Shown piece by piece: positions 10,729 to 37,441 of a DNA stretch of 40,704 nucleotides. A model generated the notes under the pieces. The model saw nothing but the letters and a program-made list of their open reading frames with translations, had not been told where the DNA came from and did no database searches. The first letter of the stretch is position 1, and each line of letters starts with the position of its first letter. This stretch comes from Methylotenera sp. (GTDB lineage Bacteria; Pseudomonadota; Gammaproteobacteria; Burkholderiales; Methylophilaceae): positions 1-40,704 of the forward strand of contig JAQTXW010000017.1 of the NCBI GenBank assembly GCA_028688575.1, written 5' to 3'. Both the position numbers and the translations under genes were made by a program.

Positions 10729-12024
<1,296 letters not shown>

Positions 12025-12073
12025 CATTTGATTGCGCTTGAAGTTTGACCCTGCGTTGAACTTGTCAACTTGG

Positions 12074-12111
12074 ACAAAAGCCTACCTCGCTACGCGTGGG
12101 TAGGCTTTTGT
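12074..12111. terminator. Rho-independent terminator after eno
   Basis: A perfect 13-bp stem (12074-12086 paired with 12099-12111, sequence ACAAAAGCCTACC) surrounds a 12-base loop. The stem carries AAAA on the left and TTTT on the right, so it could work in both directions; the obvious use is to end the eno transcript. Confidence 0.8.
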
Positions 12112-12164
12112 CTAGGTGTTGTTGTTTCAAGACCATATGTAATTTAATTTAAATAAGGCATTAA

Positions 12165-12491
12165 GTGAAAGCACTTACGCTGATTTTTGTGATATTGATT
12201 GCTTTATTACAGTACCCTTTGTGGCTTGGGAAGGGGAGCTGGTTGCGCGTGTGGGACTTAAGTCGTCAGCTAACACAGCAGCAGGAAAAAAATGAAGTAT
12301 TGATTATGAGAAATGAAACGCTTAATGCAGAAGTCCGCGACTTGAAAGCTGGGCGCGCAGCTATTGAAGAGCGCGCGCGCAGTGAACTGGGGATGATTAA
12401 GCAGGATGAAGTATTCTATCAGGTGATTGACCAGCCCTTACCCGCACCACAACCCTCCACTAATTCTATAGTAGGGCCTACTACTCCTTAA
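12165..12491 (+). CDS. ftsB: Cell division protein FtsB
   Basis: A 108-residue bitopic membrane protein. Residues 4-20 are one transmembrane helix, followed by the family hallmark [10 protein letters not shown] and a periplasmic coiled coil (about residues 30-75, with the [22 protein letters not shown] heptads), then [16 protein letters not shown] and a proline-rich tail. FtsB forms a complex with FtsL and FtsQ in the divisome. The start codon is GTG, preceded by AAGG at about six bases; no better ATG exists. It follows eno as in most Proteobacteria, although ispD, often the next gene, is replaced here by a repeat element and an unknown gene. Confidence 0.93.
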
Positions 12492-12541
12492 CGTATCATA
12501 ATGATGTCTGGCGAAGTCAGATGTGATTAAAAAACTCGTTC

Positions 12542-12719
12542 AACCCAGATTTTCCATTAGGACTTGCAGTGGCAACGCCGCACAGATTGATGGATTTATT
12601 GTGCAGATTGTATGGGCAATAGTCATTCTATTGACAGTAAATATACGCAAAAAAAAGACGTAAAGTGGGCAAGTTGACATGCAAGTAGATGCAAAATCGC
12701 GTAGTGGAAAATCTGGGTT
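12542..12719. mobile_element. 178-bp MITE-like element with terminal inverted repeats (copy A)
   Basis: The ends are inverted repeats: AACCCAGATTTTCCA at 12542-12556 matches TGGAAAATCTGGGTT at 12705-12719 exactly, with weaker pairing further in. It has no coding capacity of note. Its right part reappears inverted at 40621-40704 at about 88% identity, and a short derivative with only the two ends lies at 35131-35197. Small size, terminal repeats and multiple intergenic copies fit a non-autonomous miniature transposable element. No clear target-site duplication is visible. Confidence 0.7.
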
Positions 12720-12764
12720 CAATCCTACTGATAGTGGCGCTGGTCGTTGTCAAGTGCGTATGTA

Positions 12765-12782
12765 TGTCGTTAATTCACGACA
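12765..12782. promoter_or_regulatory. Perfect TGTC-N10-GACA site, candidate GlrR binding site
   Basis: TGTCGT-TAATTC-ACGACA is a perfect 6-bp inverted repeat and contains TGTC-N10-GACA, the motif reported for the sigma-54 activator GlrR (YfhA) in enterobacteria. Its centre lies about 85 bp upstream of the start predicted from the sigma-54 promoter at 12833-12848. That is a normal enhancer distance, and glrR itself is in this window. Confidence 0.6.
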
Positions 12783-12832
12783 AATTTAAAAGTAATGAAT
12801 CGGTAATGGGTTGTTTAATAAACATTTTTTAA

Positions 12833-12848
12833 TGGCATAGCATTTGCT
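12833..12848 (+). promoter_or_regulatory. Sigma-54 (-24/-12) promoter of the 569-residue gene
   Basis: TGGCATAGCATTTGCT matches the sigma-54 consensus TGGCACR-N4-TTGCW with a single mismatch (T for C), including the invariant GG and GC at the right spacing. Transcription would start near 12859, about 20 bases before the ATG. A palindrome TGTTTAATAAACA (12812-12824) lies immediately upstream. Confidence 0.65.
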
Positions 12849-12879
12849 TGAGTAATGTAATGTTACGCATAAGGCAGGA

Positions 12880-14589
12880 ATGAATACCATGAACAAAAAT
12901 GTGCAAGAAAATTTGAATGCGATTATAGCCGGCTATTACAGCACAGCGACCGAAGCGGCGCATCACAACTGGCGCGAAATTGCGGCGCATGTCTATGCCA
13001 ATGCGTTACGTGATCCTGATATCTCATGGTTGGACTTGCTGCTCACTTACAAACCGCTTAAAACAATAGCATCGGCAGCAAGTTTCACTGAAAACGCAGG
13101 CGCAGTTATGCAGGCGGTGACATCTCCGCTCACGCAAGCTGCTTCAACTGTGCGTGAGGGCGGTTTTTTGGCTTCTGCAGCGCATCAAGTGATGGATTTG
13201 AACCACGATCCATTAGCCAACGTTAAAGCACTCTGGCATGGCCTTGAGGCAACTGGCGAGTCAGCCAAGCGTTTGTTCGCACATGAAACAGGGCTTATGT
13301 CGATGAATGAGCGTTTGCGTTTAGCTGAGATTTATGATCTGCCACATCAGCAGCGCATTGAGGCGTTACATGGCATGACTCTGCAAGATACAGCCTCGAT
13401 GGTGGCGATAGGCTCTCTGCCGCAAATGCTCCCCAAGGCGGGCAATGGGGCAGGGTGGGGATTGAGCGAGTCCAAACAGGCTGCCGCGCTTGAATTGGCA
13501 AATTATCCTGTACGCTATGCTGAAAATATGCTGGTCTTGACTGCTGCGGAACCAGCCGTTGATTGGGCAAGGTCTGGCATGATGACAATGGCGACTAAAG
13601 GTTATGAGGGTAATGCACCGATTGAAAATAAAGGCTTCGATATCAGAAAATATGAGTTTCCTGACCCTGATTTTGATATGGTACGCTTTCTGGCTAAAGA
13701 TAAGTTTTATTACCAGTTAAATCAATCTAAAGAGGTGATGGGCGCCCACGGCTTAAAAAATGAATATAAGTTATTCAAACAAAATTTAGACTATCTGCTG
13801 GATGTGCGAATCACGCAATCAGATGAAGAGTATCAGCAGGTACTGACAGCAACAAAGCTGATGGTTGACCAAGCGGCGATATCAATAATGCAAACCGTGC
13901 AACCAGGGTTAGAAGGCGAGGTTTTAGACCACAATGCGGCGCAGTCATTAAATGCGCATTTTTCAGGTATATCGCAATTTATCGAACAAGAACGGCTTAA
14001 TAATATGCGGGATCTTGCGCTACAGGAGGCGAGTTATCAACGGCAGGAAAGTGCCAGGCTCAACCCTGATAGCGTAGGTTACGATAGGAGCGTGACACCA
14101 AGAAGCGTCACAGAAAGAGAGCTGCATCACCATGTTTACTGGCAGAAAATGTATGCAAGTGTCGATGACTTGAAAGTGAAGCTTGAGCTTTTAGGACTTA
14201 GAGATCGCGCTGAGGCTTTGGATGCGCAGGTGGAGAAGTTATTAAGAGTAAGATTGGAAGATAGCAAGGCTGAGCATCAGAAAGATATGGCCGCATTGCT
14301 CAAAATTGAGGAAGATGCCAAGCTTGCGCACTATGTAAAGACTACGCCTTTTAATATTTCAGAGCGATATTTTAATATGATTCAGAGTGATATCGGCGGT
14401 GAGTTGGCGCAGCTGCTGCAGGAAATTGAGCATGAGCGCGAATACCAGATACGTCACCAATTGTGGCGGCGACAGCATGGTGACGAGCGCAGAGAAACCG
14501 AGAGTGCCATGATAACGGCGGTGAGAGAAAAGCTATTTGGAAACACCCAGGACGCCATGAGTGACCGTGAATTAGGTCCTGAGCTTTAG
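12880..14589 (+). CDS. Unknown 569-residue, largely helical soluble protein
   Basis: I do not recognise this protein. It has no signal peptide and no clear transmembrane helix. Residues 1-240 are alanine-rich and mixed hydrophobic (for example TIASAASFTENAGAVMQAV). The central part (about 250-400) carries charged segments such as YEFPDPDFDMVRFLAKDKFYY. The C-terminal 170 residues are strongly charged and probably coiled-coil (LKVKLELLGLRDRAEALDAQ, then several E/K/R-rich helices). Three residues after the first ATG lies a second ATG; AAGG five bases before the first and AGGA nine bases before the second make both possible. It stands alone between ftsB and ygfZ, downstream of a MITE, and has its own sigma-54 promoter with a GlrR-type upstream site, so it is probably a regulated accessory protein. 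Confidence 0.8.
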   Translation: MNTMNKNVQENLNAIIAGYYSTATEAAHHNWREIAAHVYANALRDPDISWLDLLLTYKPLKTIASAASFTENAGAVMQAVTSPLTQAASTVREGGFLASAAHQVMDLNHDPLANVKALWHGLEATGESAKRLFAHETGLMSMNERLRLAEIYDLPHQQRIEALHGMTLQDTASMVAIGSLPQMLPKAGNGAGWGLSESKQAAALELANYPVRYAENMLVLTAAEPAVDWARSGMMTMATKGYEGNAPIENKGFDIRKYEFPDPDFDMVRFLAKDKFYYQLNQSKEVMGAHGLKNEYKLFKQNLDYLLDVRITQSDEEYQQVLTATKLMVDQAAISIMQTVQPGLEGEVLDHNAAQSLNAHFSGISQFIEQERLNNMRDLALQEASYQRQESARLNPDSVGYDRSVTPRSVTERELHHHVYWQKMYASVDDLKVKLELLGLRDRAEALDAQVEKLLRVRLEDSKAEHQKDMAALLKIEEDAKLAHYVKTTPFNISERYFNMIQSDIGGELAQLLQEIEHEREYQIRHQLWRRQHGDERRETESAMITAVREKLFGNTQDAMSDRELGPEL

Positions 14590-14629
14590 CACCTGTGAAT
14601 GATCATTGGGTTGATATTTTATAGGCGCG

Positions 14630-15634
14630 CTATGTAGTTGTCAGTGAGTAGGGCAGCGTTTTGATGTTTAGTGGTACATTGCCCACTAAGAGCACCGTAT
14701 TTTTTATGCTATCTAATCTTAATTCAGCTAGTACATCATAGCCTCCACCAGGGGCTGACGCGCTACGTGCAACTTTACCAACAGCTTCATTGGCACTGTT
14801 AGTGATTATTTCTCCAGGTTGAGGTGAGTTGGTGGTGTTAAGGTGCGCTAGATGCATGCGACGTTTAACTGTGCCGAGGTAATGTGTGCGGGCAACAATC
14901 TCCTGGCCAGTATAGCAGCCTTTTTTAAAGTTAATGCCTCCGAGTAAATCCAGGTTGAGCATTTGTGGTACAAATTCTTCCTGAGTGCTGGGTTTGATAT
15001 CGGGGATGCCTGCCTGAATGTCTAGCCACTCCCAGAAATCAGCGCTTACGGGCGTTGCCTGTGCGCTTAACGCCTGCCAAACTTCAGGGGCTTGTTCAAT
15101 ATCAGTAAAAATCTCAAAGCGTGGTTGCACCCCAGGTAATTTCAGGATGGCTGTATTGCCGTGTGTGCTGAGTTCATTATCTTGCGTTGGAACTTCAGAA
15201 AATAATGTGGTTAGCAAGTTTGCGGACTGTGCGCCACTCAGCCCAATTTTGATGATGGATGCACTGGCGTCCAGAATTTCTACTTGGCTGCGCAGCACAA
15301 ACATCCGCAGGCGCTTGGCAATGGGCTCGACGAGTGTCTTGGGTAGTTGCATATAAAACTGATGATCGCGTGTAAATGCGAGAAAAATAGCGAGCATGCG
15401 TCCTTTTGCGTTACAGTAGGCTGAGTAATGGGCATTTTTCCCATTGAGTTGCTTAATGTCGTTGGTGAGCTGACCTTGCAGAAAAGTGCTGGCATCATTG
15501 CCTTGTATCTGGAGCAAGCCCATGTGTGAAAGATCACAAATCACCGTTTTTTCGAGCAGGGCAGGATTGGTATCACTCGGTGGATATTTTATGGCTAAAT
15601 TTTGCAGGAACTGGTGCCAGTGCGGTATGCTCAT
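14630..15634 (-). CDS. ygfZ: Folate-binding protein YgfZ (Fe-S cluster synthesis/repair)
   Basis: A 334-residue protein related to the GcvT aminomethyltransferase fold. The diagnostic YgfZ motif K-G-C-Y-x-G-Q-E is present as FKKGCYTGQEIVARTHYLG (about residues 238-256), with the cysteine that is essential in E. coli. The N-terminal LSHMGLLQIQGNDASTFLQGQLTNDI is also typical. YgfZ uses tetrahydrofolate in the maintenance of some Fe-S enzymes such as MiaB. It is divergent from the ygfX-like gene with 39 bp between starts, the same gene pair seen in enterics, where sdhE (ygfY) lies in addition. The family identity is secure; the biochemical role is not fully defined in any organism. Confidence 0.93.
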   Translation of the reverse strand: MSIPHWHQFLQNLAIKYPPSDTNPALLEKTVICDLSHMGLLQIQGNDASTFLQGQLTNDIKQLNGKNAHYSAYCNAKGRMLAIFLAFTRDHQFYMQLPKTLVEPIAKRLRMFVLRSQVEILDASASIIKIGLSGAQSANLLTTLFSEVPTQDNELSTHGNTAILKLPGVQPRFEIFTDIEQAPEVWQALSAQATPVSADFWEWLDIQAGIPDIKPSTQEEFVPQMLNLDLLGGINFKKGCYTGQEIVARTHYLGTVKRRMHLAHLNTTNSPQPGEIITNSANEAVGKVARSASAPGGGYDVLAELRLDSIKNTVLLVGNVPLNIKTLPYSLTTT

Positions 15635-15673
15635 GCTAACTTTCTTTTAATTTAAACGACAGTTGCCTTTAAT

Positions 15674-16153
15674 GTGAAGCCACTTTATCTTAATTTCAAG
15701 CCCTCTATTATCATTATCTTATCAATGGCAATGGTATGTTCGGGTGTTTTGTACATCATATATTTATTGCCATTTTCATGGCAGATTAAATGGTTGCTGT
15801 CATGCACAGTATTGCTCTTTGTCGCTTATGGTGTATTACTGCGAGGTTTTCTGGTGTTGCCATGGTCAGTTTGCAGGCTTGAAATCACCTCCCAGCACGC
15901 GCTGATGCTCACTTATAAGAATGGCACGCAATCTTATGCACACAGGGTGCTTGAAGACAGTGTGGTCATGCCGTTTTTAGCGGTGATTCGACTGGAAATG
16001 ACGCCCTCATCCAAGGTTAAATGGCTGCTCCCGACGTCACTCATAGTGATGCCCGATATGCTGGATAGCGAGCAGTTCAGAAAATTGCGTGTCTGGATGC
16101 GTTGGGGCGCGCTATATTCATTTAATGCTGTTGAGGCCGACGCCGACGAATGA
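15674..16153 (+). CDS. YgfX (CptA)-like inner membrane protein
   Basis: A 159-residue protein with two close transmembrane helices (about residues 12-32 and 39-60), a short cytoplasmic beta-rich region and a tail with the pattern LIVMPDMLDSEQFRKLRVWMRWG, which recurs in betaproteobacterial YgfX-like proteins. E. coli YgfX has been described as a membrane toxin affecting FtsZ and MreB and is encoded next to sdhE and ygfZ. Here sdhE is absent but ygfZ is the divergent neighbour. The start is a GTG at 15674 with no clear ribosome binding site; a start further in is possible. Its last 32 bp overlap the end of the convergent mxaL. The family call rests on size, topology and context. Confidence 0.65.
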   Translation: MKPLYLNFKPSIIIILSMAMVCSGVLYIIYLLPFSWQIKWLLSCTVLLFVAYGVLLRGFLVLPWSVCRLEITSQHALMLTYKNGTQSYAHRVLEDSVVMPFLAVIRLEMTPSSKVKWLLPTSLIVMPDMLDSEQFRKLRVWMRWGALYSFNAVEADADE

Positions 16154-30571: not shown

Positions 30572-30949
30572 CTAGTTAGTTGAAGAAGTTGAGGTCGCAG
30601 GTATATTAAATGCGATGTACTCATCAATAGTGACTGCGCCATCATGATTAGCATCTGCAGCATCATAGTTGCTGGATAATAGCTTGTCTTTAGCCGCTTC
30701 TTTGGCAGATAATTTACCATCCTGATTTGTATCCAGCTTCTTGAAAACATCTTCTGCTGGTAGTTTTGATGCCTCAGCCAGTTTGATGTCAGGGATGCTA
30801 TTTTCGGCAATCAGTACGACTTTATCTTTGGCAGGTTCTAATGCTACTTTACTATCAGCAAATGCTGTAATACTGAGGCTTGAGAGTAGCAAAGCAGTGG
30901 CGATGCTACTTGTGATTGGATGTGCGATTGCGTTTGAATGGAATTTCAT
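30572..30949 (-). CDS. Secreted EF-hand calcium-binding protein
   Basis: A 125-residue exported protein. I take the ATG at 30949 as start because GGAG lies seven bases upstream; an in-frame ATG at 30970 would add seven residues. A signal peptide (about residues 1-32, ending ITAFA) precedes two calcium loops: DTNQDGKLSAKE and DANHDGAVTIDE, both with canonical ligands at positions 1, 3, 5 and 12. This is the usual bacterial paired EF-hand arrangement. The gene is next to glrR and has its own sigma-54-type promoter and GlrR-like upstream site, so the response regulator may control it. Possible roles are periplasmic calcium buffering or signalling to the envelope stress system; neither is shown. 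Confidence 0.85.
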   Translation of the reverse strand: MKFHSNAIAHPITSSIATALLLSSLSITAFADSKVALEPAKDKVVLIAENSIPDIKLAEASKLPAEDVFKKLDTNQDGKLSAKEAAKDKLLSSNYDAADANHDGAVTIDEYIAFNIPATSTSSTN

Positions 30950-30997
30950 GTGTTGGCTCCTATTATACAAATTAAAAAATTAGTGCATTCAATTATT

Positions 30998-31013
30998 AGC
31001 GAATAGTGTGCCA
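30998..31013 (-). promoter_or_regulatory. Sigma-54 (-24/-12) promoter of the EF-hand gene
   Basis: On the minus strand TGGCACACTATTCGCT matches TGGCACR-N4-TTGCW with one mismatch (C for the second T of TTGC). The GG and GC dinucleotides have the correct spacing. Transcription would begin near 30987, some 38 bases before the ATG. A sigma-70-like TATAAT also occurs at 30966-30961 but would start transcription inside or after the ribosome binding site. Confidence 0.6.
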
Positions 31014-31078
31014 ACTATAATTTAAATAATAAAAACAATTAGTTATTATATTTATTTGTTAAGACTCTACGTTTTGAT

Positions 31079-31096
31079 TGTCGCTTTCTCGGGACG
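31079..31096. promoter_or_regulatory. Near-match to the GlrR motif upstream of the EF-hand promoter
   Basis: TGTC-N10-GACG at 31079-31096 differs from the GlrR motif TGTC-N10-GACA by one base. It lies about 100 bp upstream of the start predicted from the sigma-54 promoter, a usual enhancer distance. It is weaker than the perfect site at 12765-12782. Confidence 0.4.
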
Positions 31097-31203
31097 GTGA
31101 GTTTTGATTAAATCTTAACCTGTTGAATTTAAATGATAAATATTGTTGCTAAGCAGCGACGTTAAATTAATTGTGGCTTAACATTTTGATTTTATTGTAC
31201 TTC

Positions 31204-32559
31204 TTAGGGTGATTTAAAAGCACTGACCTGAATATGATGTCGTTCTAATAGTCGATAAAATTCAGTACGGTTACGTTGTGCAAGTTTAGCGGCCTGAGTG
31301 ACATTGCCTTGTGTAGCCTTTAGCAATGAGACCAAATAATGGTGCTCAAATTGCCTGCGTGCGACCTCAAAGGGAACGATCGAGTTTTCCGTATCCTGCA
31401 AAGCTTTTTGCACCAGACTTGCTGTGATAATGTGTGTGGTTGCTAGCACTACGGTTTGCTCAATAATATTTTGCAGTTGACGCACATTGCCTGGCCACGG
31501 TGCAGAGATTAATATTTCCAGCGCTTCTGGCGCAAAACCGTTGAGTGATTTTTTATATTTCTGATTAAGTAAATGTAAAAAATGATTAGCCAATAAGCTG
31601 ATATCTTCGCGGCGACTCGCTAAAGAAGGAATTTCTAAACTTACCACATTGATGCGATAAAAGAGGTCTTCACGAAAACGACTCTCGTTCATCTCTAGCG
31701 CTAAATCACGATGTGTTGCTGAGATTAAACGTATATCTATATGAATATTGTTAGTGCTGCCCACTGGGCGTATTACACGCTCTTGTAGTGCGCGTAGCAC
31801 CTTCACTTGCAGGTTTAACGGCATGTCGCCAATTTCATCTAAAAATAGCGTGCCACCTTCAGCACTTTGAAACAGACCAACATGGTTGTTCACTGCGCCA
31901 GTAAATGCACCTTTGCTGTGACCGAACAGCTCTGATTCGAGAAGGTTCTCAGGTATAGCACCACAGTTGATTGCGACGAATGGCTTGGTATGACGTTGGC
32001 TAGAATGATGTACAGCGCGCGCTAACAACTCTTTGCCAGTCCCGCTTTCCCCCTGAATAAAAACACTGGCATCCGTATTAGCCACCATTTTGGCCTGCAT
32101 GAGCAGATTTTCCATGACTGGGCTGCGGGTGAGTATATTGGCGCGCCAGGCATTATCATGCTCAATGGAATTTTCAAGGTGTACGCCACTTAAATGCAGG
32201 GCTGACGATACTTGTTGCAATAATGCTTGGCTATCAAATGGCTTAGTTAAAAAACTAAAGGCACCTTGCTGTGTTGCGCGAACTGCATCAGGAATCGAAC
32301 CATGCGCTGTCAGCAAAATCACAGGTAAGGTGGGTTGTGCATGCTGGATTGCATCCAGCAGTGCCATCCCGTCCATCGCAGGCATGCGTAAATCACTAAT
32401 CACAAGGTCCGGGCGCTGCAATGCAATCGCAGACATGGCCGCAGCACCATTGTTAGCCAAATGAGTGGTATAACCCGCAGCGCTCAGGCGCATGCTAATG
32501 AGCTTTAGTATATCTTTGTCATCATCCACGATGAGTATGCTGGGTTTATAGGTAGTCAT
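31204..32559 (-). CDS. glrR: Sigma-54-dependent response regulator GlrR
   Basis: A 451-residue NtrC-family regulator with three domains: a receiver (about residues 6-118, phosphorylated aspartate D56 in VISDLRMP, lysine K106 in LTKPF), a sigma-54-interacting AAA+ domain (about 143-372, Walker A GESGTGKE at 170-177, the essential GAFTGA loop at 217-222, Walker B GGTLFLDE at 235-242) and a Fis-type helix-turn-helix at the C-terminus (about 405-445, [20 protein letters not shown]). It therefore can activate sigma-54 promoters. It forms an operon with glrK and qseG, overlapping qseG by 4 bp. In E. coli GlrR binds TGTC-N10-GACA and activates glmY and rpoE. Confidence 0.93.
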
Positions 32560-33146
32560 GGCTTATTGGCAGAATGAGTGTCGCGTTCATTCATGGTTTT
32601 TTCGATATTTTTCAACTCGTTGAGCTTTTGCTCAAGTGCATCATATTTTTGTTGTAAATTTTCATATTTAGTTTGCGCAGCTTCGAGTTTTTTGGTTTCA
32701 TCTCGATTCTTCTGTATTTGTTTTGTGCTGTCCAGAGTGTATTCGTACAGTAAATTAACCAATGCGTATTCCAACCAGCTCAGGTTGCCTCCCTGCAATA
32801 AATCTTGCAGCAATATTTGTGCCTTATTAATATCTCGCACTCGACTAGAAGGGAGTGAATGCATCATTGCCAGTCTTATGTGCTGAGATTTATCCTGACC
32901 GTTCTCAAGGATTGCCACACTTGTATCAGCGTATATTTTCTTCTGCTCATCAATGCCAAGTGAGGCGTAACTTTCATAAAACTTAATTAATTCAATGACA
33001 TGATCCTGCTTAATTTTTTCTTGTGTAGCAGTATTGATTAACGCATTTTGTTTAATAGTGCTGGGGCCATGATCGGCATGCTTGTTGGCGCATGCATTGA
33101 GCAGGCTTAAACATATCAGCACAACATAGAGGTTATTTATCGTCAT
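32556..33146 (-). CDS. QseG-like outer membrane lipoprotein of the GlrKR system
   Basis: A 196-residue lipoprotein. The signal peptide ends in the lipobox LLNAC with C19 as the lipidated residue, and the mature part has a helical region plus a C-terminal coiled coil (about residues 140-190, TKYENLQQKYDALEQKLNEL). It lies between the kinase and regulator genes with 4-bp overlaps on both sides, the exact place of qseG (yfhG) in E. coli. QseG interacts with the kinase QseE/GlrK in the envelope and is needed for its activity. Sequence conservation of this family is low, so the identity rests on lipoprotein character, size and position. Confidence 0.75.
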   Translation of the reverse strand: MTINNLYVVLICLSLLNACANKHADHGPSTIKQNALINTATQEKIKQDHVIELIKFYESYASLGIDEQKKIYADTSVAILENGQDKSQHIRLAMMHSLPSSRVRDINKAQILLQDLLQGGNLSWLEYALVNLLYEYTLDSTKQIQKNRDETKKLEAAQTKYENLQQKYDALEQKLNELKNIEKTMNERDTHSANKP

Positions 33147-34576
33147 TTAAGTTCCAATTTTGGCATGTTAACAATGAAGTGCGCACCTTGAGGTGAGGGG
33201 GCTAGTGTAATGCGACCGCCATGTGATGTGACGAGATCTTTTGCAATTGTTAAACCTAGCCCACTTCCGCTAATCAGACTTTTGTGTAGCGTGTCTCCGC
33301 GGTAGAAGGGGTCAAAAAGTTTTTCTTGATCTGCTTTAGAAAAACCAGGGCCACTGTCTGAAATCCCTATGCGCCATCCATTTCTGTCTTGATGTGAAGT
33401 GATTGTTATTTTTCCGTGAGTTTGCGTATATTTGATAGCGTTAGAGATTAAATTATCTAAAATAATTGCAAGTTTTTCTTCGTCAGCCACAACATCATCC
33501 ACATGGTAATCTGTTTGAATCTGTAGTTTGTTGTTTTGTATGCTAAGCGCGTAGGTTTTAAGCGTCTTATTAATGATGTCGGGTAAATATAGAAGGCTTA
33601 GATTTAATTTGAGAGGTGTTGTTTCGATACGGGTATAGTTGAGTAAGTTTTCAATCATCTTTTGCAGGCGGATACTGTTATCACGCAAAATGGTGATAAT
33701 TTCCGACTGTTGTGTGGAAAGCGAGCCGCCAATGCCGTCATGTAATAACTCGGTACCTTCTCTGATAGCAGTTAGCGGTGTTTTTAGCTCGTGTGATACA
33801 TGCCTTAAAAATTGTTGTTTTTGCTGGTTTAACTCTTTGAGTTCAGTGCGTAGCCAATCAAGGCGCTGTCCTAAAATACGCAAGTCCCCCGGGCCATCAA
33901 TCGCAATCGGTGCATCATATTCCCCCGTTCCAAGGTGCTTAATTGCGGCGTCCATGCGACGTATAGGCACGGCGAGTAAGTAAGTGATGCCTGCTGCAAT
34001 TAATAGCGCTAATGGGATTAATACCAAGCTCTGTAGCACCAGTTTTTTCTGTGTGGCTTGTGCGTTGAGTACCACTTGATGAGAGGTGGCATCAATCGTG
34101 GCATTATTTTCTTTGATAATAATTTCAACTTGTTTATCAAGCAGACTAAATTGGTTAAGAAAATTTTTTTCGTTGATCTGTGACTTTTTGGCTTTGTTAA
34201 TGAGTAAATTCAATTGTGAAATTTGATTGCTCAGTAAATTAAGATTTTGTTTTTGTGGAACCTTTTGCGCTAACTGTTTCAGCTGAGTTAGAACGATATT
34301 GAATTTATCATAGGCCTTGTTGTAGTTGTTAAATAGCACCTCATCTTGTAGTACAAAATACTGTCGGCTACTTCGCTCCATCAGGTGCAGCTGTTCTTGT
34401 AATAAGCGCCCAGCACGCGTCCCTTCTACTGCTTTTGAAATAGTGATCTGACTTTGTTTAGACAGCGCATCAAAGGCGATATTTGCATTCACAAATACCC
34501 ATATAAGCGGCAAAATTGCAAATGCAAAGCCAACCAATAGTAGTTTTAGAAATGAACTTGGGTAATAAAAACGCAT
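33143..34576 (-). CDS. glrK: Sensor histidine kinase GlrK (QseE)
   Basis: A 477-residue membrane kinase. Transmembrane helices lie at about residues 10-30 and 179-202 and bracket a periplasmic helical sensor domain of about 150 residues. A HAMP linker (about 203-255) follows, then the HisKA domain with H262 in VSHELKTPLTAIREG, and a HATPase domain with the N box DNLISNAIKYT, the G1 box DSGPGF and the G2 box GSGLGLTIA. It is the first gene of the glrK-qseG-glrR operon. In enterics it responds to envelope and amino-sugar related cues. Homologues outside enterics are less studied, so the signal here is unknown. Confidence 0.88.
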   Translation of the reverse strand: MRFYYPSSFLKLLLVGFAFAILPLIWVFVNANIAFDALSKQSQITISKAVEGTRAGRLLQEQLHLMERSSRQYFVLQDEVLFNNYNKAYDKFNIVLTQLKQLAQKVPQKQNLNLLSNQISQLNLLINKAKKSQINEKNFLNQFSLLDKQVEIIIKENNATIDATSHQVVLNAQATQKKLVLQSLVLIPLALLIAAGITYLLAVPIRRMDAAIKHLGTGEYDAPIAIDGPGDLRILGQRLDWLRTELKELNQQKQQFLRHVSHELKTPLTAIREGTELLHDGIGGSLSTQQSEIITILRDNSIRLQKMIENLLNYTRIETTPLKLNLSLLYLPDIINKTLKTYALSIQNNKLQIQTDYHVDDVVADEEKLAIILDNLISNAIKYTQTHGKITITSHQDRNGWRIGISDSGPGFSKADQEKLFDPFYRGDTLHKSLISGSGLGLTIAKDLVTSHGGRITLAPSPQGAHFIVNMPKLELK

Positions 34577-34639: not shown

Positions 34640-35122
34640 ATGAATTTCTTATCAATTATTGTTGCCGTTGCTAATCACCAAGTGATTGGTTTGAATAACA
34701 CTTTACCTTGGCATCTACCTGAAGACCTCAAGCGTTTCCGAGCGCTCACCACGGGTCATCACATTATAATGGGGCGCAAAACCTACGAGTCGTTAGGTCG
34801 CTTATTGCCTAACAGAACTACGGTGATTGTGACGCGTAATCAAGATTACAAAATTGAAGGGGCATTGATTGCAAATTCACTGGAATCTGCCATTGCGTTA
34901 TGCAAAGATGACCCCGAGCCATTTTTAATTGGAGGCGCTGAACTATATCAACAGGGTTTAAGTCTGGCGACTAGACTCTATATCACGCAAGTGCATGCCG
35001 ATTACGTGGGCGATGCATTTTTCCCTGAAGTGGATTTTGATAGCTGGCAATTAACAGAAAAAAAAGACCACCTCTCAGGAAGTGGTCTTAAATATAGTGA
35101 TTTGATTTACGAGCGTAAGTAA
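34640..35122 (+). CDS. folA: Dihydrofolate reductase
   Basis: A 160-residue enzyme that reduces dihydrofolate to tetrahydrofolate with NADPH, needed after thymidylate synthase. The N-terminal SIIVAVANHQVIGLNNTLPWHLPEDL, the acidic catalytic residue in the PEDLKRF segment, GRKTYESLGRLLPNRTTVIVTR and the IGGAELYQQGL and YITQVHADYVGDAFFPE segments are all typical. The length equals that of E. coli FolA. The start agrees with the family but lacks a ribosome binding site and may be leaderless. Its last 65 bases contain the terminator of the convergent decarboxylase gene, so its C-terminal codons also form a hairpin. Confidence 0.97.
   Translation: MNFLSIIVAVANHQVIGLNNTLPWHLPEDLKRFRALTTGHHIIMGRKTYESLGRLLPNRTTVIVTRNQDYKIEGALIANSLESAIALCKDDPEPFLIGGAELYQQGLSLATRLYITQVHADYVGDAFFPEVDFDSWQLTEKKDHLSGSGLKYSDLIYERK
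35058..35089 (-). terminator. Rho-independent terminator of the decarboxylase gene, inside folA
   Basis: AAGACCAC (35064-35071) pairs perfectly with GTGGTCTT (35082-35089) around a 10-base loop; an eight-A tract at 35058-35065 reads as a U-tract on the minus strand. It lies about 110 bp beyond the stop of the minus-strand decarboxylase and inside the folA reading frame. Confidence 0.65.
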
Positions 35123-35130
35123 TGATTGTG

Positions 35131-35197
35131 GTTTAACCTGGATTTTTCATTAGGACTAGCAGATGCAAAATCGCCTAGTGGAAAATCTGGGTTTAAC
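35131..35197. mobile_element. 67-bp internally deleted copy of the MITE family (copy B)
   Basis: The ends GTTTAACC and GGTTTAAC flank two imperfect arms (35131-35154 and 35174-35197) matching the two ends of the 12542-12719 element; the interior is reduced to about 20 bases. It fills the spacer between the convergent folA and decarboxylase genes and would form a long hairpin in either transcript. Confidence 0.65.
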
Positions 35198-35200
35198 TGC

Positions 35201-37441
35201 TTATTGCTCCACGCAGTCTACATAGTAAATCGATTTACCTTCAGCTACTTGTTTTACCAAGCCGTGAACATCGGTTTCAAAGCCAGGAAAACGCTCGTTA
35301 AATTCACGTGCAAATTTCAGATAGTTCACGATAATCTTATTAAATTGCTCTCCAGGAATCAGCAGTGGAATGCCAGGCGGGTAAGGTGTTAATAACACGG
35401 CTGTGATGCGTCCTTCAAGCTCGTCAATTGGCACACGGTCTATTTTTCGGTGCGCCATTTTTGCAAAAGCATCGGTAGGTTTCATGGCGGGGACCATGTC
35501 AGACAAGTACATTTCAGTGGTCAGACGTGCTACATCATTGGCTTTATACACCTCGTGAATCTGTGTACATAAATCGCGCAAGCCCATGCGTTCATAGCGC
35601 GGATGCTTTTGCACAAACTCTGGTAACACTTTCCACAAAGGCTGGTTTTTGTCGTAATCATCCTTAAATTGCTGTAACGCCGCCACCATGGTATTCCAGC
35701 GGCCTTTAGTAATGCCGATGGTAAACATAATGAAAAATGAATAAAGCCCAGTCTTTTCTACAATCACGCCATGCTCAGCAAGGTATTTGGTCACAATAGC
35801 GGCTGGGATGCCGATATCATCTGAGAAGTCACCGTGAATATCGAGTCCTGGCGTGATGATGGTCGCCTTGATTGGGTCCAGCATGTTAAAGCCTTCTGCC
35901 AGATTGCCAAAACCATGCCATTTTTCATTGGCTTTCAGCATCCACGCTTCGCGCTCTTCAATGCCTTCTTCTGATAAGTCATTAGGACCCCAGACTTTGA
36001 ACCACCAGTCAGTGCCCCATTCTTCATCCACTTTGCGCATGGCACGGCGAAAATCCAGCGCTTCCATAATTGACTCTTCAACCAATGCGGTGCCGCCTGG
36101 TGCTTCCATCATGGCTGCTGCAACGTCACAACTTGCAATAATGGAGTACTGCGGGCTGGTTGACGTGTGCATTAAGTAGGCTTCATTAAATACATCTCGG
36201 TCAAGATTGTAGTTTTCTGCATCTTGCACCAAAATTTGAGAAGCTTGGCTTAGGCCGGCTAATAGTTTATGCGTTGACTGCGTAGAAAACACCATGCTTT
36301 CTTTACAGCGTGGGCGGTCTGCGCCGATAGCGTGGTAGTCACCGTAGAAGTCGTGGAAGGTGGCATGTGGCAGCCACGCTTCGTCAAAATGCAGGGTGTC
36401 AATCTTGCCATCCAGCATTTCCTTGATTTCTTCTACGTTATACAGCACGCCATCATAGGTGGATTGTGTAATCGTAAGTACACGCGGTTTCGCATTTTTA
36501 TCAGTGGCAAACGGGTTGCGTTCGATTTTCTTTTGTATATTTTCCCAGGCAAATTCGCTTTTTGGAATCGGGCCAATAATGCCAAAGTGATTGCGGGTTG
36601 GCATTAAAAACACAGGGATAGCACCTGTCATGATGATTGAGTGCAAAACCGATTTATGGCAGTTGCGGTCTACCACCACAATATCACCTGGAGCAACGGT
36701 TGAGTTCCATACGATTTTGTTGGAAGTCGATGTGCCGTTAGTGACAAAATAAAGATGGTCACAGTTATAGATACGCGCTGCGTTGCGTTCTGATGCTGCG
36801 ACAGGGCCTGTATGGTCAAGTAACTGACCTAGTTCATCCACTGCGTTACACACGTCTGCACGTAGCATATTCTCGCCAAAGAACTGGTGAAACATTTGGC
36901 CGACAGGGGATTTTAAAAACGCCACGCCACCTGAGTGCCCAGGGCAATGCCATGAGTAGGAGCCGTCAGCCGCGTAGTGTGTCAACGCCTTAAAGAACGG
37001 AGGCGGGAGGCTGTCTAAGTAGGCTTTGGCTTCACGGATAATCAAACGAGCAACAAATTCAGGCGTATCTTCATTCATGTGGATGAAGCCATGTAATTCA
37101 CGTAACACATCATTGGGAATGTGTCTTGATGTACGTGTCTCACCATGCAGAAAAATAGGGATTTCTTCGTTACGGTGGCGGATTTCAGCCACAAATTTAC
37201 GCAGTTGCTCAATTGCTTCTGGCTTTTCTTCGATGAACTCTTCATCGTCTATGGATAAGATAAAGGCAGAAGCGCGACTTTGTTGCTGGGCAAAGGAGGT
37301 GAGGTCGCCATAACTGGTAACGCCAAGCACTTCTGTTCCTTCTTCTTCTATGGCTTTGGCAAGGACACGGATACCCAAGCCTGATGAGTTTTCAGAGCGG
37401 AAGTCTTCATCGATGATGACAACAGGGAAACGAAATTTCAT
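35201..37441 (-). CDS. Orn/Lys/Arg decarboxylase of the AdiA/LdcC fold
   Basis: A 746-residue PLP decarboxylase. It has an N-terminal response-regulator-like wing domain (about residues 1-135), the PLP domain (about 150-460) with WHCPGHSGG, TNGTSTSNKIV, VLTITQSTYDGV, DEAWLPHATF and the PLP lysine K392 in STQSTHKLLAG, and a C-terminal domain ending in LLTPYPPGIPLLIPGE. This is the large, fold-type I acid-inducible/biosynthetic class. Sequence alone does not tell lysine from arginine or ornithine; as a single copy beside housekeeping genes it is likely to supply polyamines. TAGGAG five bases before ATG is a strong ribosome binding site, part of a CTCCT-TT-AGGAG palindrome. The terminator is inside folA. 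Confidence 0.9.
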   Translation of the reverse strand: MKFRFPVVIIDEDFRSENSSGLGIRVLAKAIEEEGTEVLGVTSYGDLTSFAQQQSRASAFILSIDDEEFIEEKPEAIEQLRKFVAEIRHRNEEIPIFLHGETRTSRHIPNDVLRELHGFIHMNEDTPEFVARLIIREAKAYLDSLPPPFFKALTHYAADGSYSWHCPGHSGGVAFLKSPVGQMFHQFFGENMLRADVCNAVDELGQLLDHTGPVAASERNAARIYNCDHLYFVTNGTSTSNKIVWNSTVAPGDIVVVDRNCHKSVLHSIIMTGAIPVFLMPTRNHFGIIGPIPKSEFAWENIQKKIERNPFATDKNAKPRVLTITQSTYDGVLYNVEEIKEMLDGKIDTLHFDEAWLPHATFHDFYGDYHAIGADRPRCKESMVFSTQSTHKLLAGLSQASQILVQDAENYNLDRDVFNEAYLMHTSTSPQYSIIASCDVAAAMMEAPGGTALVEESIMEALDFRRAMRKVDEEWGTDWWFKVWGPNDLSEEGIEEREAWMLKANEKWHGFGNLAEGFNMLDPIKATIITPGLDIHGDFSDDIGIPAAIVTKYLAEHGVIVEKTGLYSFFIMFTIGITKGRWNTMVAALQQFKDDYDKNQPLWKVLPEFVQKHPRYERMGLRDLCTQIHEVYKANDVARLTTEMYLSDMVPAMKPTDAFAKMAHRKIDRVPIDELEGRITAVLLTPYPPGIPLLIPGEQFNKIIVNYLKFAREFNERFPGFETDVHGLVKQVAEGKSIYYVDCVEQ

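What the first reader, a model, noticed from the sequence alone, without database searches (positions are those of the whole stretch)
12765..14589. Unknown 569-residue gene under a predicted GlrR/sigma-54 promoter
The spacer before this gene has a perfect TGTC-N10-GACA site (12765-12782) and, about 85 bp from the inferred start, a sigma-54 promoter with one mismatch (12833-12848). The same window encodes GlrR with an intact GAFTGA loop. The combination of activator, enhancer motif and promoter is hard to get by chance. The target protein matches no family I recognise and is soluble and helical with a coiled-coil C-terminus. It would be a new output of the GlrKR envelope-stress system outside enterics.
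Basis: partly seen in the sequence, partly recalled or inferred. Interest (0 to 1): 0.75.

Follow-up and report, generated by a model that had tools for sequence, protein, structure and literature searches.

The report
Unknown gene in secretion-system regulon
A gene of unknown function has a genuine, evolutionarily conserved sigma-54 switch in front of it, but it travels with a type IV secretion system that carries its own copy of the GlrR activator, so it is more likely a part or cargo of that secretion machine than a general envelope-stress gene.

Summary
Dyad and promoter recur before all three homologues with enough upstream DNA, in otherwise diverged spacers, and never in order in 20,000 shuffles.

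The reading changes. Among 52 genomes of the genus, the 569-residue family occurs in four. All four carry one specific VirB/D4 type IV secretion system (five carriers in all) and a second GlrR-like activator. GlrR itself is missing from two of the four, yet one of those keeps dyad and promoter. A fifth genome lost the gene, leaving 37 codons, and also lacks the 27-kb secretion locus. Secretion-cluster genes and a dispersed operon of metallopeptidase-like genes share the dyad-plus-sigma-54 layout. In the window's genome all four relaxed dyads sit before such promoters, including this gene's.

Best reading: a sigma-54 regulon run mainly by a GlrR duplicate with a degenerate receiver serves a type IV secretion system. 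This protein is a new helical member with no known family. That it is secreted is inferred only; it lacks both C-terminal modules shared by other cluster proteins. GlrR may still bind the site in the window's species.

The parts
12765..12782 (.). enhancer dyad TGTCGTTAATTCACGACA (GlrR-type, TGTMGY-N6-RCKACA)
   Evidence: conserved in G033 and G024 homologues
12833..12848 (+). sigma-54 promoter TGGCATAGCATTTGCT, 50 nt after the dyad; inferred transcription start about 12858
   Evidence: conserved in two homologues
12880..14589 (+). 569-residue gene (translation start probably the second ATG, 12889, giving 566 residues)
   Evidence: no Pfam, NCBIfam, PHROGs, PADLOC or PDB sequence match
13162..13464 (+). 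N-terminal module, residues about 95-195, the only part shared with a distant 562-residue protein of another genus
13678..14061 (+). helical repeat 1 (residues 267-394), predicted four-helix unit
   Evidence: model mean pLDDT 71.6; profile similarity to repeat 2, P 1.6e-4
14101..14544 (+). helical repeat 2 (residues 408-555), predicted four-helix unit with long last helix
31204..32559 (-). glrR, NtrC-type response regulator with GAFTGA; possible co-activator
   Evidence: best NCBIfam match GlrR 619.7 bits, below the 763 cut-off
32556..33146 (-). qseG-like lipoprotein gene between glrK and glrR
   Evidence: position and lipoprotein-like start; no NCBIfam match
33143..34576 (-). glrK-like histidine kinase
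   Evidence: HisKA and HATPase domains
31079..31096 (.). GlrR dyad with one mismatch, 65 nt before the sigma-54 box of the EF-hand gene
30998..31013 (-). sigma-54 promoter TGGCACACTATTCGCT of the EF-hand gene
   Evidence: conserved
30572..30970 (-). small EF-hand protein gene, the conserved GlrR-linked target

Best explanation
The gene is a member of a sigma-54 regulon that serves a chromosomal VirB/D4 type IV secretion system. The regulon's activator is most likely a duplicate of GlrR encoded beside the secretion genes (in this genome on contig C71, not in the window). Its AAA+ and recognition-helix regions resemble GlrR, but its receiver has lost the acidic pair and the conserved lysine, so it is probably not switched by ordinary phosphorylation. 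It binds dyads TGT[A/C]G[T/C]-N6-[A/G]C[T/G]ACA about 50-160 nt upstream of sigma-54 promoters and fires secretion-linked genes, a dispersed metallopeptidase-type operon and this gene together. GlrR, where present, may bind the same site. The 569-residue protein is soluble and helical (an N-terminal module plus two four-helix repeats) and works with the secretion system, most likely as a fast-evolving translocated protein, otherwise as a cytosolic adaptor. Shown: conserved dyad and promoter, co-occurrence, shared promoter layout, degenerate receiver. Inferred: binding by the paralogue, activation, translocation.
For: Family in exactly 4 of 52 genomes, all 4 with the specific VirB4 (5 carriers), hypergeometric 1.8e-5, not corrected for kinship. 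Paralogue in full in G000, G033, G024 and as a contig-edge fragment in G034; G011 has the secretion system but no paralogue beside it, no strong sigma-54 box there and no 569 gene. GlrR lost in G033 and G034 with the site kept in G033. A dyad stands before every secretion-cluster promoter tested whose box precedes a gene. The relaxed dyad is found 4 times in G000, all 4 before boxes scoring at least 20.4 of 21 (chance per site about 0.005): this gene, two secretion-cluster genes, and an operon beside birA with HELAH metallopeptidase-like genes. G016 is collinear with G024 except for loss of this gene (37-codon remnant) and absence of the 27-kb secretion cluster. Rapid divergence: 73% between G000 and G033 where VirB4 is 97%.
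Against: The gene lies at the ftsB locus, not in the secretion cluster. Its dyads carry the C at position 4 typical of GlrR sites rather than the A seen in at least one half of secretion-cluster sites. The G034 copy shows no sigma-54 box in the 126 bp available. The protein lacks the two C-terminal modules shared by other cluster proteins, and no toxin domain or informative fold was found. Only four genomes, in two related pairs, carry it. No promoter was seen for the virB operon itself.
Confidence: 0.6

Rival explanations
1. One reading: GlrR of the window directly activates the gene as a new output of the GlrKR envelope-stress system.
For: The dyad matches the GlrR sites of the genus almost letter for letter (for example TGTCGTTAATTAGCGACA in G001) and the enteric consensus TGTC(N)10GACA (PMC4987338). 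GlrR is intact in G000 and G024.
Against: GlrR is absent in two of the four genomes with the gene, one of which keeps dyad and promoter. 17 of 19 GlrR genomes lack the gene. The conserved GlrR-linked target is the EF-hand gene beside glrR.
Confidence: 0.2
2. Both GlrR and the secretion-linked paralogue use the site, so the gene is the point where envelope status and the secretion regulon meet in species that have both.
For: The dyad fits both site collections; the recognition helices are near identical (RTEFY).
Against: No binding data; G033 does without GlrR.
Confidence: 0.35
3. The gene is an ordinary accessory gene at a variable spot behind ftsB, and its link with the secretion system reflects kinship of the few genomes sampled.
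For: Only four carriers in two related pairs; always behind ftsB where context is known.
Against: G011 carries the secretion system without the paralogue and without the gene, G016 lost the gene and lacks the system, and the promoter layout is shared with secretion-cluster genes.
Confidence: 0.15
4. PrsR of the PEP-CTERM/exosortase system is the activator.
For: A PEP-CTERM gene of G010 has a TGTCGC-type dyad and sigma-54 box with a similar 63-nt gap, and PrsR target sites have a mean gap of 62.8 nt (PMC1569441).
Against: The published PrsR motif ends in TTTACA, and the gene has no PEP-CTERM tail.
Confidence: 0.03

Closest known systems
GlrKR (QseEF) regulon of enteric bacteria: GlrR, TGTC-N10-GACA sites before the sigma-54 promoters of glmY and rpoE
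   Same: Same dyad, same sigma-54 promoter logic; glrK-qseG-glrR order is present in the window.
   Different: Target is a protein of unknown family, not a small RNA or rpoE; two carriers lack GlrR; the best candidate activator is a secretion-linked duplicate with a degenerate receiver.
Sigma-54 and bEBP control of type VI secretion (Sfa2 type)
   Same: A dedicated NtrC-type activator switches a secretion cluster and its scattered effector genes through sigma-54 promoters (PMC8855297 abstract, for H2-T6SS).
   Different: Here the machine is a VirB/D4 type IV system and the activator is a GlrR duplicate.
Bacteria-killing X-T4SS with XVIPCD effectors
   Same: Chromosomal VirB/D4 system with candidate cargo genes in the cluster and scattered over the genome (compare PMC6536674).
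   Different: VirB4 and VirB9 are closest in the PDB to R388 TrwK and TrwF; cluster proteins share other C-terminal modules, and the 569-residue protein has none of these.

Membership tests
GlrR-dependent promoter | TGTC-N10-GACA (TGT-N12-ACA) site upstream | tested here: met
   consensus from PMC4987338 and PMC6075780
GlrR-dependent promoter | sigma-54 -24/-12 promoter downstream of the site | tested here: met
GlrR-dependent promoter | GlrR encoded in every genome that keeps the site | tested here: not met
   G033 lacks glrKR but keeps site and promoter
GlrR-dependent promoter | expression depends on glrR and rpoN | not testable with these tools
   needs mutants
GlrR equivalog (NCBIfam NF011695), window protein 31204-32559 | score at or above the curated cut-off of 763 bits | tested here: not met
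   619.7 bits, though it is the best family by a wide margin and qseG-like and glrK-like neighbours are present
secretion-cluster cargo | C-terminal HPEL or tail module shared by the cluster's proteins | tested here: not met
   best E-values 1.7-6
X-T4SS effector | C-terminal XVIPCD | tested here: inconclusive
   no Pfam match for the window protein up to E 1; it was not checked that the library holds an XVIPCD model
secretion-cluster regulon | TGTMGY-N6-RCKACA dyad before a strong sigma-54 promoter | tested here: met
   the G024 dyad fits only TGTC-N10-GACA
PrsR/PEP-CTERM promoter | 17-nt motif ending in TTTACA | tested here: not met
   site ends in GACA; motif from PMC1569441

The most novel reading that the evidence does not exclude
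A duplicated GlrR that has lost phospho-receiver function has become the private activator of a type IV secretion regulon, and the 569-residue family is a new class of helical protein delivered by that system without the C-terminal modules used by the other cargo.
Probability: 0.3. Interest if true: 0.75.

Novelty: new variant of a known kind. Interest (0 to 1): 0.6.

Why it matters
Sigma-54 and a dedicated activator are known for type VI secretion; the papers searched here gave no such wiring for a VirB/D4 type IV system, though that search was limited. The dyad-plus-promoter signature gives a way to list a secretion system's scattered cargo from sequence alone (four sites in a 2.25-Mb genome, all with promoters). 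It also shows how an activator duplicate can take over a regulon while keeping nearly the parental DNA site, and it gives an orphan protein family a testable role.

Tried and rejected
Family libraries (Pfam, NCBIfam, PHROGs, PADLOC) and PDB sequences gave nothing for the 569-residue protein. It has no relatives found in plasmids, phages or viral contigs or in 300 sampled genomes of the order outside its own genome. Direct homology to secretion-cluster proteins was tested and not found. The full-length structure model was poor (mean pLDDT 47) because only two sequences could be used; the C-terminal part modelled better (71.6) but matched only generic helical bundles (Foldseek best E 0.23, best Z 9.5), so no function is read from it. 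PrsR was considered and dropped because its published motif differs. No Rfam family was found in 12000-15700.

Full report
Observation. The dyad, the sigma-54 box and the gene are present as described. The box has two mismatches to the strict consensus and none to TGGCAYR-N4-TTGCW. Eleven perfect dyads exist in the 2.25-Mb genome, fewer than the 24 of the backward control, so the dyad alone is not evidence; only this one has a strong sigma-54 box at a plausible distance. Shuffling the spacer 20,000 times never gave both in order.

Conservation. The family has four full-length members in 52 genomes of the genus; one lies in a public record, PHCJ01000013.1, Betaproteobacteria bacterium HGW-Betaproteobacteria-22. 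All three members with upstream DNA have a perfect TGTC-N10-GACA dyad and a strong sigma-54 box, with gaps of 50, 50 and 62 nt, in spacers that otherwise barely align. The fourth has only 126 bp before its contig begins, with no box. A genus-wide search for dyad, 40-70 nt and box gave eight hits and none for the backward control: three before this gene, three directly behind glrR before EF-hand genes, one before a PEP-CTERM gene and one upstream of a ferredoxin-reductase-like gene.

What GlrR does in this genus. In 15 of 17 glrR loci read, dyads of the form TGTCGY-N6-RCGACA (some variants) lie 61-65 and usually also about 127 nt before a sigma-54 promoter of a small EF-hand gene just behind glrR; one of the two exceptions was cut short at 166 bp. 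The window has this arrangement too, with one mismatch (31079-31096, 30998-31013). This is good comparative evidence that GlrR here recognises the enteric-type site, and that the EF-hand gene is its conserved target.

A second GlrR. The genome encodes a GlrR-like paralogue on contig C71, 55% identical to GlrR, with GlrR as its best NCBIfam match. In G033 and G024 it lies next to, and divergent from, a full virB1-virB11/virD4-type cluster (gene names assigned by order and by recognisable sequence, with VirB4, VirB9 and the virB1 transglycosylase confirmed by searches). In G000 a contig break separates the two, and in G034 a contig-edge fragment of it precedes the same kind of dyad, promoter and small gene. 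In the three complete copies the receiver lacks the acidic pair and the conserved lysine; the phospho-acceptor position is N, D and E respectively.

Co-occurrence. The specific VirB4 (at least 84% identity among carriers) occurs in five genomes, the four with the gene plus G011. G011 has no paralogue beside its cluster, no strong sigma-54 box in it and no 569 gene. GlrR is absent from G033 and G034, where folA and thyA are directly adjacent. GlrR occurs in 19 genomes, counted as matches of 53-57% identity to the paralogue; two of these have the gene. G016, collinear with G024 at about 90% over 50 kb, lacks two stretches: this gene, of which 37 codons remain, and the 27-kb secretion cluster. 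The remnant shows loss of the gene; for the cluster, loss in G016 and gain in G024 cannot be told apart. Kinship among carriers is not corrected for, so the 1.8e-5 is a guide only.

Shared promoter layout. The secretion-cluster promoters tested have a dyad TGT[AC]G[TC]-N6-[AG]C[TG]ACA upstream (single-site chance about 0.001-0.03); two further boxes included as comparison, which lie inside genes, have none. Searching six genomes for this form gave four sites in G000, all before boxes scoring at least 20.4 of 21: this gene, two secretion-cluster genes and an operon beside birA. G033 shows the same four plus one site inside a gene. The birA operon in G000 encodes a 509-residue protein with the cluster's HPEL module and two HELAH metallopeptidase-like proteins with its tail module. 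The cluster itself encodes an M91-like metallopeptidase in G024 (PF14891, E 1.4e-4, just below its cut-off).

The protein. It shows no signal peptide or membrane segment by inspection. The C-terminal part is predicted as two four-helix units with weak but consistent profile similarity to each other (P 1.6e-4). A distant 562-residue protein in another genus of the family shares only residues about 95-195 and differs beyond, which suggests a modular protein. Divergence is fast: 73% between G000 and G033 where VirB4 is 97%, and 44% between G000 and G024 where GlrR is 92%. It lacks the two C-terminal modules of the other cluster proteins. Cargo or adaptor therefore cannot be decided; fast divergence and dispersed location favour cargo.

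Verdict. The regulatory prediction holds (about 0.9 that the promoter is real). The assignment to the window's GlrR and to envelope stress is doubtful; the assignment to a type IV secretion regulon is better supported (about 0.75); a role as translocated protein is an inference (about 0.5).

Noticed in passing
window 30572-31161: EF-hand gene behind glrR with GlrR dyads and sigma-54 promoter, a layout kept in 15 of 17 glrR loci read; a strong candidate for the main GlrR target in this genus.
   Followed up: yes
window 12541-12725 and about 35122-35201: Intergenic repeat with inverted ends AACCCAGATTTTCC...GGAAAATCTGGGTT, also at L056 2560 and behind ftsB in G033; looks like a small hairpin or MITE-type repeat.
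   Followed up: partly
L051 (G010 C12), dyad TGTCGCAAATTTGCGACA: GlrR-type dyad and sigma-54 promoter before a PEP-CTERM protein gene, although the published PrsR motif differs.
   Followed up: partly
L061 1005-8632, L058 4290-10439, L142 1807-5083: Secretion-linked genes encode several HExxH metallopeptidase-like proteins and small proteins sharing an HPEL module or a tail of about 40 residues that may be secretion signals; largely without Pfam names.
   Followed up: partly
L127 6693-8381 (G473): 562-residue protein sharing only the N-terminal module of the 569-residue family, with a different C-terminal half.
   Followed up: partly
L092 (G012 C22): GlrR-like gene with an internal TAA stop.
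   Followed up: no
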